Shown here piece after piece: positions 41,046 through 44,433 of a stretch of DNA of 64,000 nucleotides. The stretch lies in the NCBI RefSeq assembly GCF_005938105.1, contig NZ_VCPE01000011.1, positions 62,001 through 126,000 of the forward strand, written 5' to 3'. The position numbers and the translations under genes were made by a program. Every line of letters begins with the position of its first letter. Within the stretch, counting starts at the first letter, position 1. The notes under the pieces were generated by a model, which did no database searches, had not been told where the DNA came from, and was given only the letters and a program-made list of their open reading frames with translations. This stretch comes from Brucella haematophila (GTDB lineage Bacteria; Pseudomonadota; Alphaproteobacteria; Rhizobiales; Rhizobiaceae).

Positions 41046-41090
41046 ACTGCGGACCCGACACATTGCCGGAATTGACCGGCATATTGTCGG
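41046..41090. promoter_or_regulatory. operator-like motif, copy near the ABC transporter
   Basis: It reads CTGCGGACCCGACACATTGC, then CGGAATTGACCGGCATATTG and TCGG. The block TTG(C/T)CGGAAT(T/A)GACCGGCATAT recurs at 44386-44433 with two substitutions in 22 bases. Half-sites of TGTCGG/CCGGCA type are arranged with internal dyad symmetry. Confidence 0.7.
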
Positions 41091-41192
41091 CGAAGGAGAT
41101 GCTTTTTCCGACGAAAAGACATCGTTGAGCGTGAACGTACTGCCCTGCCCCTCATCGACAGAACAAGCGCCACACCTTGAACCCCGAGCGCG

Positions 41193-41237
41193 AAAAAGGC
41201 CGCACTCCCACCCGATGATCCGGATGGGAATGCGACC
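41193..41237 (-). terminator. intrinsic terminator of the fusion-enzyme gene
   Basis: On the reverse strand GGTCGCATTCCCA and TGGGAGTGCGGCC form a long stem with G-U pairs, followed directly by TTTTT. It lies 29 bp after the stop codon. Confidence 0.85.
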
Positions 41238-41265
41238 TTGAAAATCAGCACTGATATCGAAGACT

Positions 41266-44200
41266 TTACTTCAACGCAGCCTCAAAACTGTCAGCGAGAA
41301 CGCTGAGCAGATGATCGGCATTGGCGCGGTTGAACACCATGGACGGGCGCATCTTCAACACGTTGTCGTGCGGACCCTCGGTGCCCATCAGGATGCCGCG
41401 TTCGCGCGCGCCGTCATTGATCTTGCGGGCCAGTGCCGTTGCCGGGGCCTTGGTCTTGCGATCCGTGACAAGCTCGATACCGAGGAACAGTCCCTGACCG
41501 CGAACATCGCCGATAATATCGAAGCGCTGCTGCATCTTGCGGAAACCGTCGATGAGATAGTTGCCGACATTCAGCGCATTCTCGCGCAGCTTGTCCCGTT
41601 CGATCACATCGATGACTGCAAGACCAGCGGCACAGGAAACCGGATTGCCACCGAAGGTGTTGAAGTATTCCATGCCGTTGTTGAAGCTGTCTGCGACTTC
41701 ACGCGTGGTCACGACAGCCGACATCGGATGGCCGTTGCCAATCGGCTTGCCCATGGTGACGATATCCGGCACGACGTCCTGCATTTCAAACGCCCACCAA
41801 TGGCTGCCAACGCGGCCGAAACCGACCTGCACTTCGTCGGCAACGCAAAGTCCGCCTTCCGCGCGAACCATAGCGTAAACTTGCCTGAGGTAACCTTCCG
41901 GCAGGAACACCTGACCAGCGACACTCGGAATGGATTCCGCGAAGAAGAAAGCCGGCGCACGACCCTGCTTGCGCATAGTGTCGATCTGTTCGGCAATGCT
42001 TTCGGCAAAGCGCTTGCCATGCTCCTCCAGCGGCCAGTCTTCCGGGGCGTGATAGCTGTCTGGAATGACCGCTTCATAGACGTGATCCGGCCGTCCCTTG
42101 CCGCCCTTCCGCTTGTACTTGTAGGGGCTGAGATCAATCAGTTCCTGCGTGGTGCCATGATAGGCCCAGTCGAGAACGATGGCTTCCTTGCGACCCGTAT
42201 GATTGCGCGCCATACGCAGCATCAGGCTGTTTGCTTCGCTGCCCGAGCAGGCAAAGGACGCGACCGTCAGCCCCTCCGGCAAGGTTGCCGTCAACCGTTC
42301 AGCATAGGCGACGATGTTGTCGTGCAGATAGCGCGTGTTGGTATTGAGCAGCGCCGCCTGACGGGCGATGGCTTCCACGACTTCCGGATGGGCATGGCCC
42401 AGATGGCAGACATTGTTGAAGCAATCGAGATAGGCGCGGCCATAATTGTCGATCAGCCACGTCCCGTCGCCGCGCACGAACTTGATCGGCTCCGAATAGG
42501 AAATCGACAGGTTCGGCAGCAGGATTTCCTTGCGCTTCGCGATGATCTCGGCGCGGGTTCGCCCATCCTGATGGAAGGTTTCCGGCGGAATGCCGGCCAG
42601 CGCCGCCACATCCGGGAAAATATCAGCCCATACGTCGAGATAGGCGGCTTCGCCAACGCCCAGAATTTCGGTTGCCGTCAGATTGATATCCGTCGTCATT
42701 TCGAAATGCAGATGCGGAGTCCATCCGCCATTCTCGTGAATATCGCCCATATGGCCGACAAGGTCGCCAGCCTGCAACTTCTGACCCGGCTTGAGACGGC
42801 CAAGCGCCTCATGCGCCATATGTCCCCACAAGGTTACGAAAGGCGGGCAGCCTTCCGGGCGATGCTCAAGCTTGACAAGACCGCCATAGCCGAGCGGCTC
42901 GCGTTCAATTTCGACACTGACGACGGTTGCGGCAAGCGGCGTATAAAGCGGCGTTCCGGCAGGCATGAACAGATCGACGCCCAGATGATGGATGCGGCGC
43001 TGCCCTTCGATGAAGCGCGATTCAAACGCCGTGTCGGTATAGACGGTGCGCTTTTCGCCCCAAGGTCCGATACCAAGCTGGACGTTGTTTTCGGCGCAGA
43101 AATTATCCCACCATTCCGTTGCTTGCCCGGCGCGCTGTTCAGCGGAAGCAACCGTCATGAAATGCGTTGCATCGCCATAAGGCACCAGAGCCTTGGTCAT
43201 GGTTGCCGGTGCCGGGCGCACAATCGGAGCAAATGTTTTGCTGTTATCGGCAATCCATTTGCGGACCGCACCCGCGCCTTCAATGGCGTCGAAGCCGCAG
43301 GCCTTGCGCAGAATAGCAGCGGCAAAGCGCGGGTTCATCGCGTCCATCTTTTCCAGAAGACGCCAGGCCGGTGCCTCGCTGATCGCGAGATATGGATTGT
43401 CATCCGTCTTGTCGTGGCGCGAAGCCGAGAAAGTGACGCTGGTGACGAGACGCATGGCAATGAGATCGAACAACAGGTCGATTTCTTCCGCCTTGAGCGG
43501 GTATTTTTCATGGAAACCGGCGGCCAGCGCTGCCGCCGCGCCGATTGGGTCTTCCATATCGAGGATGGAATAGGCGCAGGCAATGGCGACTTCGGCAATC
43601 AGGACGGTGTGCACCGCATCGCCAAAATCGATCAGTCCGGCAATCTGTTCATGGTCGCTCTTGCTGACCAGCACATTCCAGTCATTGGCATCATTATGGA
43701 TGACCTGCGCGCGCAAGCGCGACAATTTCGGCGCGACATAGTTTTCAAAACGCACGATGAAGCGCTCAAGCAGCGCACGCCTGTCGGCATCACGGACGAA
43801 ATGCAGGCGGGTCCGCGCCCGGCCTGCATGGCGCAGATCCCAATCGAGTTCGCGCACGGCACCCGGATGGATAAAGCCCTGCAAGGCATGATCCAGTTCG
43901 CCAAGCGAGCGGCCCAGATTACGCATCAATGCAAATGTGCGCTTGACTTCGGCGAGCGGAACGCCCGGAAGCCAGCCCACCAGTCTCATGGCGTGGCGCT
44001 CGCCACCGGTAGCCACAGCCGATGCAAGCACATCGCCGGAAAGGCTCGGCTTCAACTGCGGAACGGCAAGCTTTGCATCCGCGTTGGAAAGATGGTGCAG
44101 AAGTGCGGTCTGGAATTCGCTTTCGACCTGCGGCTCGCTGGCATTGACGATCTTCAAAATCCAGTCAGCGTCCGTCCCGGTTTCCAGGCGAAAATTGCGA

Positions 44201-44313
44201 TCTCGTTCGCTGTCGAGCGGCGATGCCGTTGCGGTGACGCCAAAGACTTCAATGGCTAGTTTCTCGGCATCGGCTGCGGAAAACTGCGGGTTCGGATGGG
44301 AGAGATCGGTCAT
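41266..44313 (-). CDS. kinase / M23-like / class III PLP phospho-lyase fusion enzyme
   Basis: 1015 residues, three domains, no signal peptide. (1) About 1-360: aminoglycoside-phosphotransferase-like kinase with HNDANDWN (206-213) and DFGD (229-232). (2) About 410-560: M23/LytM-like domain with all metal ligands, HLGVD (443-447) and HLHFE (534-538). (3) About 590-1015: class III PLP enzyme of the AGXT2L type (LNTNTRYLHD, SGSEAN, DEVQVGFGRVG, MGKPIGNGHP with PLP-lysine 856). Homologous human enzymes are hydroxylysine kinase and the phosphohydroxylysine/phosphoethanolamine phospho-lyases. Predicted reaction: phosphorylate an amino alcohol, then eliminate ammonia and phosphate to an aldehyde. Role of the M23 part unknown. 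It is divergent from its probable Lrp regulator. Confidence 0.9.
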   Translation of the reverse strand: MTDLSHPNPQFSAADAEKLAIEVFGVTATASPLDSERDRNFRLETGTDADWILKIVNASEPQVESEFQTALLHHLSNADAKLAVPQLKPSLSGDVLASAVATGGERHAMRLVGWLPGVPLAEVKRTFALMRNLGRSLGELDHALQGFIHPGAVRELDWDLRHAGRARTRLHFVRDADRRALLERFIVRFENYVAPKLSRLRAQVIHNDANDWNVLVSKSDHEQIAGLIDFGDAVHTVLIAEVAIACAYSILDMEDPIGAAAALAAGFHEKYPLKAEEIDLLFDLIAMRLVTSVTFSASRHDKTDDNPYLAISEAPAWRLLEKMDAMNPRFAAAILRKACGFDAIEGAGAVRKWIADNSKTFAPIVRPAPATMTKALVPYGDATHFMTVASAEQRAGQATEWWDNFCAENNVQLGIGPWGEKRTVYTDTAFESRFIEGQRRIHHLGVDLFMPAGTPLYTPLAATVVSVEIEREPLGYGGLVKLEHRPEGCPPFVTLWGHMAHEALGRLKPGQKLQAGDLVGHMGDIHENGGWTPHLHFEMTTDINLTATEILGVGEAAYLDVWADIFPDVAALAGIPPETFHQDGRTRAEIIAKRKEILLPNLSISYSEPIKFVRGDGTWLIDNYGRAYLDCFNNVCHLGHAHPEVVEAIARQAALLNTNTRYLHDNIVAYAERLTATLPEGLTVASFACSGSEANSLMLRMARNHTGRKEAIVLDWAYHGTTQELIDLSPYKYKRKGGKGRPDHVYEAVIPDSYHAPEDWPLEEHGKRFAESIAEQIDTMRKQGRAPAFFFAESIPSVAGQVFLPEGYLRQVYAMVRAEGGLCVADEVQVGFGRVGSHWWAFEMQDVVPDIVTMGKPIGNGHPMSAVVTTREVADSFNNGMEYFNTFGGNPVSCAAGLAVIDVIERDKLRENALNVGNYLIDGFRKMQQRFDIIGDVRGQGLFLGIELVTDRKTKAPATALARKINDGARERGILMGTEGPHDNVLKMRPSMVFNRANADHLLSVLADSFEAALK

Positions 44314-44385
44314 AGACGGTGCGTTTCCAGTTTACATTTCTTATCAGAAGCTTGGCACGCAATGCGTTTTCGGGCATCAAGTATC

Positions 44386-44433
44386 CTGTCGGAAGAACCG
44401 GCACTTTGTCGGAATAGACCGGCATATGTCCGG
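44386..44433. promoter_or_regulatory. operator-like motif, copy in the fusion enzyme/Lrp divergent promoter
   Basis: It starts CTGTCGGAAGAACCGGCACT and continues with TTGTCGGAATAGACCGGCAT and ATGTCCGG. TGTCGGAA-N3/4-CCGGCA is repeated twice in tandem, with a third half-site. It is nearly identical to the motif at 41046-41090. It sits 20-67 bp before the Lrp start and 73-120 bp before the fusion-enzyme start. Confidence 0.75.

What the first reader, a model, noticed from the sequence alone, without database searches (positions are those of the whole stretch)
41046..44433. Same roughly 45-bp operator before an Lrp regulator and, 3.3 kb away, before an ABC transporter
The sequence at 44386-44433 (TGTCGGAA-N-CCGGCA repeats) and that at 41046-41090 share a block of 22 bases with two differences, plus flanking half-sites. 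One lies in the divergent promoter of the Lrp gene and the kinase/PLP fusion enzyme; the other lies upstream of the leftward amino-acid transporter. This binds three transcription units into one likely regulon, with the transporter importing the substrate of the fusion enzyme. The similarity is seen; the regulator assignment is inference.
Basis: partly seen in the sequence, partly recalled or inferred. Interest (0 to 1): 0.75.

Follow-up and report, generated by a model that had tools for sequence, protein, structure and literature searches.

The report
Two-promoter operator of a local Lrp
A small regulator gene, the two-step enzyme beside it and a nearby amino-acid importer carry the same elaborate DNA switch, and this package of genes and switches appears to have moved between distantly related soil bacteria, although what it eats is still unknown.

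Summary
The shared element is about 83 bp (41008-41090, 44351-44433): phased half-sites CCGRCA/TGYCGG in one register at both promoters. Alignment score is 27; best of 300 shuffles 14. In this 5.5 Mb genome the array pattern occurs only at these two promoters. In 35 genomes of the genus, 75 of 78 matches lie at them; 3 are coding matches. In named relatives the register precedes the kinase/M23/phospholyase-like fusion gene beside its Lrp and, where the transporter is linked (32 of 80 loci), the transporter too, in Alpha-, Beta- and Gammaproteobacteria. Consensus letters of the two promoters agree at 36 of 43 positions in register, 5-13 when shifted. The regulator assignment is strongly supported, not shown: no binding data. 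The fusion tree places Pseudomonas among alphaproteobacterial sequences, suggesting transfer of the module with both operators. Most likely an Lrp octamer wraps each array, senses the imported amino acid, activates enzyme and transporter and represses itself. The kind of system is known; this member was not found in the papers searched. The substrate is open.

The parts
44351..44433 (.). operator array 1 in the fusion/Lrp divergent promoter: GGCA-type half-sites at register 0 (44354), 19 (44373), 46 (44400), 67 (44421); TGYC-type at 33 (44387), 53 (44407), 73 (44427)
41008..41090 (.). operator array 2 upstream of the transporter operon, same register (register 0 = 41011): exact half-sites at 41055, 41064, 41076, 41085; degenerate ones at register 0, 19, 26, 33
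44453..44893 (+). Lrp/AsnC-family regulator; the start is more likely ATG 44453 than ATG 44426: conservation begins there, and an in-frame stop precedes it in two relatives (G002, G003)
41266..44313 (-). 1015-aa fusion: APH-like kinase (32-270), M23 domain (443-541), class-III aminotransferase-fold lyase-like domain (610-1008); family NF004799/PRK06148
41196..41239 (-). terminator-like hairpin after the fusion gene, short U tail
   Evidence: not listed by the consensus scan
40151..40936 (-). periplasmic amino-acid-binding protein (SBP_bac_3)
39441..40127 (-). ABC permease 1, polar amino acid type
38770..39429 (-). ABC permease 2, polar amino acid type
38009..38773 (-). ABC ATPase

Best explanation
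The two sites are operators of the adjacent Lrp/AsnC-family protein. Each is an array of about 83 bp in which half-sites CCGRCA and TGYCGG alternate so that like half-sites recur every 20-21 bp, that is, on one face of the helix. A multimeric Lrp (probably an octamer) is inferred to wrap each array. On binding the imported amino acid it is inferred to activate the fusion enzyme and the transporter and to repress its own gene, because the array ends about 20 bp before the lrp start codon. The transporter brings in an alpha-amino acid; the kinase domain phosphorylates it and the PLP domain removes phosphate and ammonia, as in hydroxylysine salvage. Shown: the arrays, their register, their specificity in the genome, their conservation and linkage, and the intact catalytic motifs. 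Inferred: that this Lrp binds, the direction of regulation, the oligomer, the ligand and the substrate.
For: Best promoter-promoter score 27 against at most 14 in 300 shuffles. Own genome: 2 places; of 38 single palindromes the three at these promoters have the best array context (5, 6, 6; next 12; lower is better). Genus: 75 of 78 matches at the two promoters, 0 for the reversed pattern in 35 genomes. 80 named loci: 91 of 93 N5/6 palindromes and 75 of 78 N3 palindromes fall in 19.3 kb of target promoter, the rest in 1.23 Mb. Same register at both promoters; consensus agreement 36 of 43 against 5-13 of 32-42 at ten shifts (representatives chosen by me). Absence with the genes in G283 and G014. 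Near-invariant HTH in 84 Lrp sequences. Six-gene set with both operators in Pseudomonas and, the transporter one degenerate, in two Paraburkholderia. In five P. putida-group loci a second Lrp copy sits divergent from the transporter, again across an array. APH, M23 and PLP motif residues intact in 81 of 81 fusions, this one included; alpha-amino-acid-binding Arg and Asp in 33 of 33 SBPs (residue roles recalled).
Against: No binding or expression data. In G011 both arrays, the fusion and the transporter remain but no Lrp is adjacent; an Lrp homologue (73%) lies on another contig. In two Paraburkholderia the transporter array is degenerate. L229 and L078 carry the fusion with no Lrp found within the fetched flanks. 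No sigma-70-like promoter was found in 40900-44500 (0 found, 1.8 expected in shuffles), so activation against repression cannot be read from geometry; the part of the array nearest the target genes could instead be core promoter. The register is not rigid: in Pseudomonas the fusion/Lrp sites from 46 on are shifted by one base. Single palindromes alone are common (38 in the own genome against 4 for the reversed pattern) and prove nothing.
Confidence: 0.82

Rival explanations
1. The arrays are bound by a different regulator, global or unrelated, and the Lrp is merely one of its targets.
For: G011 keeps both arrays without an adjacent Lrp. The genome has 13 other Lrp-like matches (14 matches in G000).
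Against: A regulator with other targets should leave sites elsewhere; none is found in the own genome. In one search, 15 of 17 matching genomes have only on-site matches and the two off-site ones lie in coding ORFs; one of 20 genomes had a match to the reversed control. The array follows this Lrp across classes and is lacking in two genomes without the fusion gene.
Confidence: 0.1
2. The second site is a recent duplication of the first and has no function.
For: The two sites are similar over 77 nt in this genome.
Against: Each site is conserved on its own in distant relatives, with flanks diverged (mean top-letter frequency 0.82 inside against 0.44-0.60 outside at the transporter), and each has its own letters kept across genera.
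Confidence: 0.02
3. The outer part of the element (AGCTTGGCAC ... GGCATC) is the core promoter of the leftward genes, not part of the operator, and the protein is a repressor that sits just upstream or over it.
For: It lies about 30-75 bp from the start codons in the same orientation relative to both target genes. Several of its letters are as conserved as the half-sites.
Against: It contains the GGCA half-site core in the register of the array, and it does not look like a sigma-70 promoter.
Confidence: 0.3
4. The substrate is ethanolamine (kinase then ethanolamine-phosphate phospho-lyase), not a hydroxy amino acid.
For: Best solved relative of the lyase half is 6tor, ethanolamine-phosphate phospho-lyase (E 2.4e-130).
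Against: The linked transporter is of the polar amino acid type and keeps the Arg and Asp that in this family hold the alpha-carboxylate and alpha-amino group (roles recalled).
Confidence: 0.15

Closest known systems
BarR of Acidianus hospitalis and Sulfolobales (PMC10201364; passages seen)
   Same: Lrp-type regulator divergent from an aminotransferase gene; several evenly spaced semipalindromic sites in the intergenic region; DNA appears wrapped on an octamer; represses its own gene and activates the target in a reporter system.
   Different: Archaeal; different, A+T-rich 15-bp site; beta-alanine as effector; no second array at a transporter operon in the passages seen.
Local Lrp/AsnC regulators of Pseudomonas: BkdR, KynR, DadR, PA2577 (PMC8707732; passages seen)
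   Same: Amino-acid-related regulators with narrow targets, most of them divergent from the target.
   Different: Other target genes; PA2577 represses one transporter gene; no array shared by two promoters in the passages seen.
Human hydroxylysine kinase and AGXT2L phospholyases (Veiga-da-Cunha 2012; seen only as a cited reference in PMC8154272; content recalled; the paper itself is not held)
   Same: The same two-step logic: kinase, then a PLP phospholyase of the class-III fold.
   Different: Separate proteins, no M23 domain, no linked transporter or Lrp (recalled).

Membership tests
Lrp/AsnC local regulator | AsnC-type HTH plus AsnC_trans_reg (RAM) domain | tested here: met
   PF13404 42.3 bits (cutoff 27), PF01037 34.7 bits (cutoff 25)
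Lrp/AsnC local regulator | gene divergent from a metabolic target across a short intergenic region | tested here: met
   74 of 80 named loci scored as a divergent pair; 5 of the other 6 (L183, L185-L188) show an lrp-like start upstream of the fusion as well; L229 has none within the flank
Lrp/AsnC local regulator | several helically phased palindromic sites | tested here: met
   (phasing read from sequence only)
Lrp/AsnC local regulator | direct binding, octamer, amino acid effector | not testable with these tools
   needs experiment
Named equivalogs (LysM, Lrp, AsnC) | NCBIfam equivalog cutoff | tested here: not met
   LysM 66.6 bits (cutoff 180), Lrp 47.5 (233), AsnC 38 (227)
NF004799 / PRK06148 fusion family | curated score cutoff 1128 | tested here: met
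   1737.1 bits over 1-1014; the family is named 'hypothetical protein'
Ammoniophospholyase (AGXT2L type) | class-III fold with PLP lysine | tested here: met
   Aminotran_3 248.8 bits; Lys in MGKPIG 81 of 81 (its role as PLP lysine is recalled)
Ammoniophospholyase (AGXT2L type) | phospholyase activity and substrate | not testable with these tools
   similarity to 6tor and 5g4i only
Polar amino acid ABC transporter | SBP_bac_3, two BPD permeases, ATPase | tested here: met
   permease domain TIGR01726 above its cutoff in both permeases
Known-substrate PAAT systems (cystine, ectoine, Lys/Arg/Orn) | equivalog or subfamily cutoff | tested here: not met
   SBP: 203.5 against 256 (Lys/Arg/Orn), 198.5 against 312 (cystine), 96.9 against 190.9 (EhuB); ATPase 329.9 against 345.4 (EhuA)

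The most novel reading that the evidence does not exclude
A self-contained, horizontally mobile regulon for a hydroxylated alpha-amino acid such as 5-hydroxylysine: sensor, importer and a single kinase-M23-phospholyase chain travel together between proteobacterial classes with an octamer-sized operator at each promoter. The conserved M23 zinc site (81 of 81 sequences) would then belong to the pathway, for example by releasing or gating the substrate, which no hydroxylysine pathway known to me has.
Probability: 0.25. Interest if true: 0.6.

Novelty: new member of a known kind. Interest (0 to 1): 0.42.

Why it matters
It gives a widely conserved but uncharacterised fusion enzyme a dedicated sensor, a transporter and a readable operator, so its substrate becomes testable: whichever amino acid the binding protein and the Lrp bind is the likely substrate. 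It is also a clean case of operator geometry (half-site order and phase over about 83 bp) kept at two separate promoters across bacterial classes, useful for testing how local Lrp proteins count and wrap their sites.

Tried and rejected
The literal motif of the finding gave no match at either site. Sigma-70-type promoters: none found in 40900-44500; a sigma-54 reading of TTGGCAC was considered by eye and dropped, because it would point the wrong way at the transporter and lacks a constant second element. Wider regulon: of 38 single palindromes in the own genome, 35 lack array context. Off-site array matches: 3 in the genus (G283, G022, G012). Those of G283 and G022 lie in a long ORF, which I read in G022 as DNA polymerase I (by eye, not run against a library); G012 is judged from nearly identical flanking DNA. 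Two off-site matches lie in ORFs that read as siroheme synthase and as bioH/bioC (by eye). The pattern was made from the sites themselves, so only its lack of off-site matches is evidence. Neighbour genes as clues to the substrate: in 15 chosen loci of 80, with a crude longest-ORF caller, no gene beyond the six-gene set recurred in more than two loci. Literature on the fusion or its Lrp: the listings and 58 of an open-access library showed no title or abstract start that points to it; two motif-database papers in the listing (PMC7674921, PMC11387232) were not opened and could hold a predicted motif. RegPrecise and subscription papers could not be searched. Structure prediction was not used, since it would not settle binding or substrate.
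Full report
What was checked. The finding says that a roughly 45-bp element is shared by the divergent promoter of an Lrp gene and a fusion enzyme, and by the promoter of an amino-acid transporter 3.3 kb away. The sequence shows it: 41063-41084 and 44406-44427 differ at 2 of 22 bases, and each place has four exact half-sites, CCGRCA or TGYCGG. The spelling given in the finding does not match literally. The units are TGYCGG-N5/6-CCGRCA, joined by N3. The best ungapped alignment of the two promoters is longer, 77 nt (41006-41082 against 44349-44425), score 27, against a maximum of 14 in 300 dinucleotide-preserving shuffles. 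The repeat finder reported it independently as its first family, 62 nt at 73%.

The genes. The leftward 1015-aa protein has an APH-type kinase domain, an M23 domain and a class-III aminotransferase domain, and belongs to NCBIfam NF004799, named 'hypothetical protein'. Its last part is closest, among solved structures, to ethanolamine-phosphate phospho-lyase 6tor (E 2.4e-130) and a phospholyase 5g4i. The rightward gene is an Lrp/AsnC regulator. Downstream of the fusion gene, on the same strand, are a binding protein, two permeases and an ATPase of the polar amino acid type; in the rows shown none reaches the cutoff of a model with a named substrate, while both permeases pass the generic domain TIGR01726 (for the ATPase 25 of 190 rows were shown). 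A hairpin of -36.1 kcal/mol (z -8.2, 0 of 200 shuffles as good) follows the fusion gene at 41196-41239. Only three U follow the stem, and the consensus scan did not list it, so 'terminator' is likely but not certain. The Lrp start is probably ATG 44453: matches to many distant relatives begin there, and in G002 and G003 a stop codon lies in frame just before it. The array then ends about 20 bp before the start codon.

Specificity. In the own genome of 5.5 Mb the pattern CCGRCANNNTGYCGGN{5,6}CCGRCA occurs at two places, both here, each on both strands. The simpler palindrome occurs at 38 places, against 4 for the reversed control, so it is common background. Scored for half-sites in register on either side, the three at these promoters get 5, 6 and 6, and the best of the other 35 gets 12 (lower is better). 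In 35 genomes of the genus, 31 have the array pattern, with 78 matches in all by the column sums; the reversed control has none. Three matches (G283, G012, G022) are off-site: 27 of the 30 loci fetched for hold Lrp, fusion or binding-protein sequence and these three do not; the matches of G283 and G022 lie in a long ORF, read in G022 as DNA polymerase I, and that of G012 has nearly the same flanks. The other 75 lie beside the fusion or the binding-protein gene, from coordinates and fetched sequence. Thus 30 of 35 genomes have the exact pattern at the fusion/Lrp promoter. Of the five that do not, G283 and G014 have no fusion match at E up to 1e-50; G013, 72% complete, has only 44-47% identical relatives of the lyase part; and G017 and G291 have the fusion with a degenerate array. 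A close binding-protein orthologue (83-100% identity) is in 16 of 35 genomes; the exact pattern is at its promoter in 15, and G288 has a variant.

Named relatives. One scan of named genomes gave 80 loci with a full-length relative of the fusion (the 80 best of 587, itself a capped list, so a sample of near relatives). An Lrp relative was scored as divergent in 74 of 80. In five more, of the P. putida group, the best-scoring Lrp was a second copy, and the printed upstream region shows an lrp-like start there too; L229 had none. The transporter, with a binding protein of 64-99% identity, is linked in 32 of the 80, in Brucella/Ochrobactrum, Rhizobium sp. P38BS-XIX and unnamed Rhizobiales, Pseudomonas and Paraburkholderia. 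In the 80 loci the N5/6 palindrome occurs 91 times in 19,297 bases of target promoter and twice in 1,232,435 other bases; the N3 palindrome 75 times against 3. These loci are related to each other, so the counts are not independent.

A second pattern, TGYCGGARTNGRCCGRCA, made from the sites themselves, was sought in 20 genomes: 17 match, 29 matches, of which 27 are on-site (25 loci plus the two here) and 2 lie in coding ORFs; one genome had one match to the reversed control.

Register. Taking the GGCA of TTGGCAY as zero, the fusion/Lrp promoters have GGCA at 19, 26, 46 or 47, and 67 or 68, and TGYC at 33, 53 or 54, and 73 to 75, in varying subsets (73 distinct promoters of 74). Exceptions: two Labrys promoters had no anchor; L167, L222, L230 and L231 were anchored on another TTGCAY, which shifts their numbers; Pseudomonas is shifted by one base from 46 on. 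The transporter promoters show the same register, although the anchor there was set on the core at 53, so agreement at 53 and 67 is built in and only the other positions are evidence; the two Paraburkholderia rows needed a relaxed core. A test on representatives chosen by me (14 transporter promoters without Paraburkholderia; 21 fusion/Lrp promoters without Pseudomonas and Paraburkholderia) found 43 positions conserved in both, 36 with the same letter; at ten shifts it was 5-13 of 32-42. Like half-sites thus recur every 20-21 bp, two helical turns. The shared element spans about 83 bp: 44351-44433 and 41008-41090.

Regulator. In 84 Lrp sequences (one of 85 dropped, no translation) the segment GLSRSA-xx-ERV-xx-LE-xx-G-x-IRGYRADIG is nearly invariant, while the ligand-binding half varies more (mean top-letter frequency 0.88 in the recognition region against 0.74). 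That fits an unchanged site. In five P. putida-group loci a second Lrp copy lies between the fusion gene and the transporter, divergent from the latter and again across an array. Against: in G011 the arrays, fusion and transporter stand without an adjacent Lrp, a 73% relative lying on another contig beside a 133-residue fusion fragment. I know of no binding experiment and could run none, so the assignment is strong inference.

Enzyme and substrate. In 81 fusions (this one and the 80) the APH residues H, D, N and DxGD, the M23 residues HxxxD, H and HxH, and the lysine of MGKPIG are all present. In 33 binding proteins the Arg and Asp that in this family hold the alpha-carboxylate and alpha-amino group are present in all (the roles are recalled, the alignment to the ancestral protein 4zv1 is). 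That speaks for an alpha-amino acid and against ethanolamine. The kinase-then-phospholyase logic is that of hydroxylysine breakdown in animals (recalled; Veiga-da-Cunha 2012 is cited in PMC8154272, passages seen). PMC12930750 (passages seen) says that information on hydroxylysine routes in Pseudomonas is scarce and cites work assigning 5-hydroxylysine to lysine pathways, which does not favour this reading. The substrate stays open.

History. A tree of 34 chosen fusions, rooted at the midpoint for drawing only, places seven Pseudomonas with two Rhizobiales sequences (100/99), in a larger group with the transporter-carrying Brucella (86/85, not strong), apart from Mesorhizobium, Ensifer and Labrys (100/100). 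Pseudomonas thus sits among Alphaproteobacteria. That the module with both operators crossed classes is the likely reading; only the fusion was put on a tree.

How it works. The best analogue that I saw is BarR (PMC10201364, passages): an Lrp-type octamer that appears to wrap a row of sites between its own gene and a divergent aminotransferase gene, repressing the first and activating the second in a reporter system. Here the same is inferred, with a second array serving the importer. Direction of control is not settled: no sigma-70-like promoter was recognised, and the outer part of the element could be core promoter.

Verdict. The kind of system is known; this member and its operator did not show in the listings of the open-access searches, two motif-database papers among them being unopened.

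Noticed in passing
L183, L185-L188 (P. putida group): A second Lrp copy lies between the fusion gene and the transporter, divergent from the transporter, so both arrays have an adjacent regulator gene.
   Followed up: partly
L264 (G011 C3) and L065 (G011 C2): Both arrays, fusion and transporter are present without an adjacent Lrp; a 73% Lrp lies on another contig beside a 133-residue fusion fragment.
   Followed up: partly
L063 (G010): About 170 nt are inserted between the array and the lrp start, while the fusion side keeps its spacing.
   Followed up: no
window 41266-44313, residues 443-541: The M23 domain inside the fusion keeps its zinc-ligand motif residues in 81 of 81 sequences, with no evident role in a kinase/phospholyase protein (ligand roles recalled).
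   Followed up: partly
window 44426-44453: The longest-ORF start of the Lrp gene (44426) overlaps the operator; conservation and in-frame stops in two relatives favour 44453.
   Followed up: yes
window 19854-20612: A second binding-protein gene, 51% identical to the one at 40151-40936, lies in the same window (G000:C3:81854-82612).
   Followed up: no
L230 10794-13718: An Ensifer locus has a second, 32% identical fusion-like ORF near the first, on the other strand.
   Followed up: no
G006 C1:650341-653076: The fusion gene is read in several pieces in this 69%-complete genome, possibly frameshifts or assembly errors.
   Followed up: no
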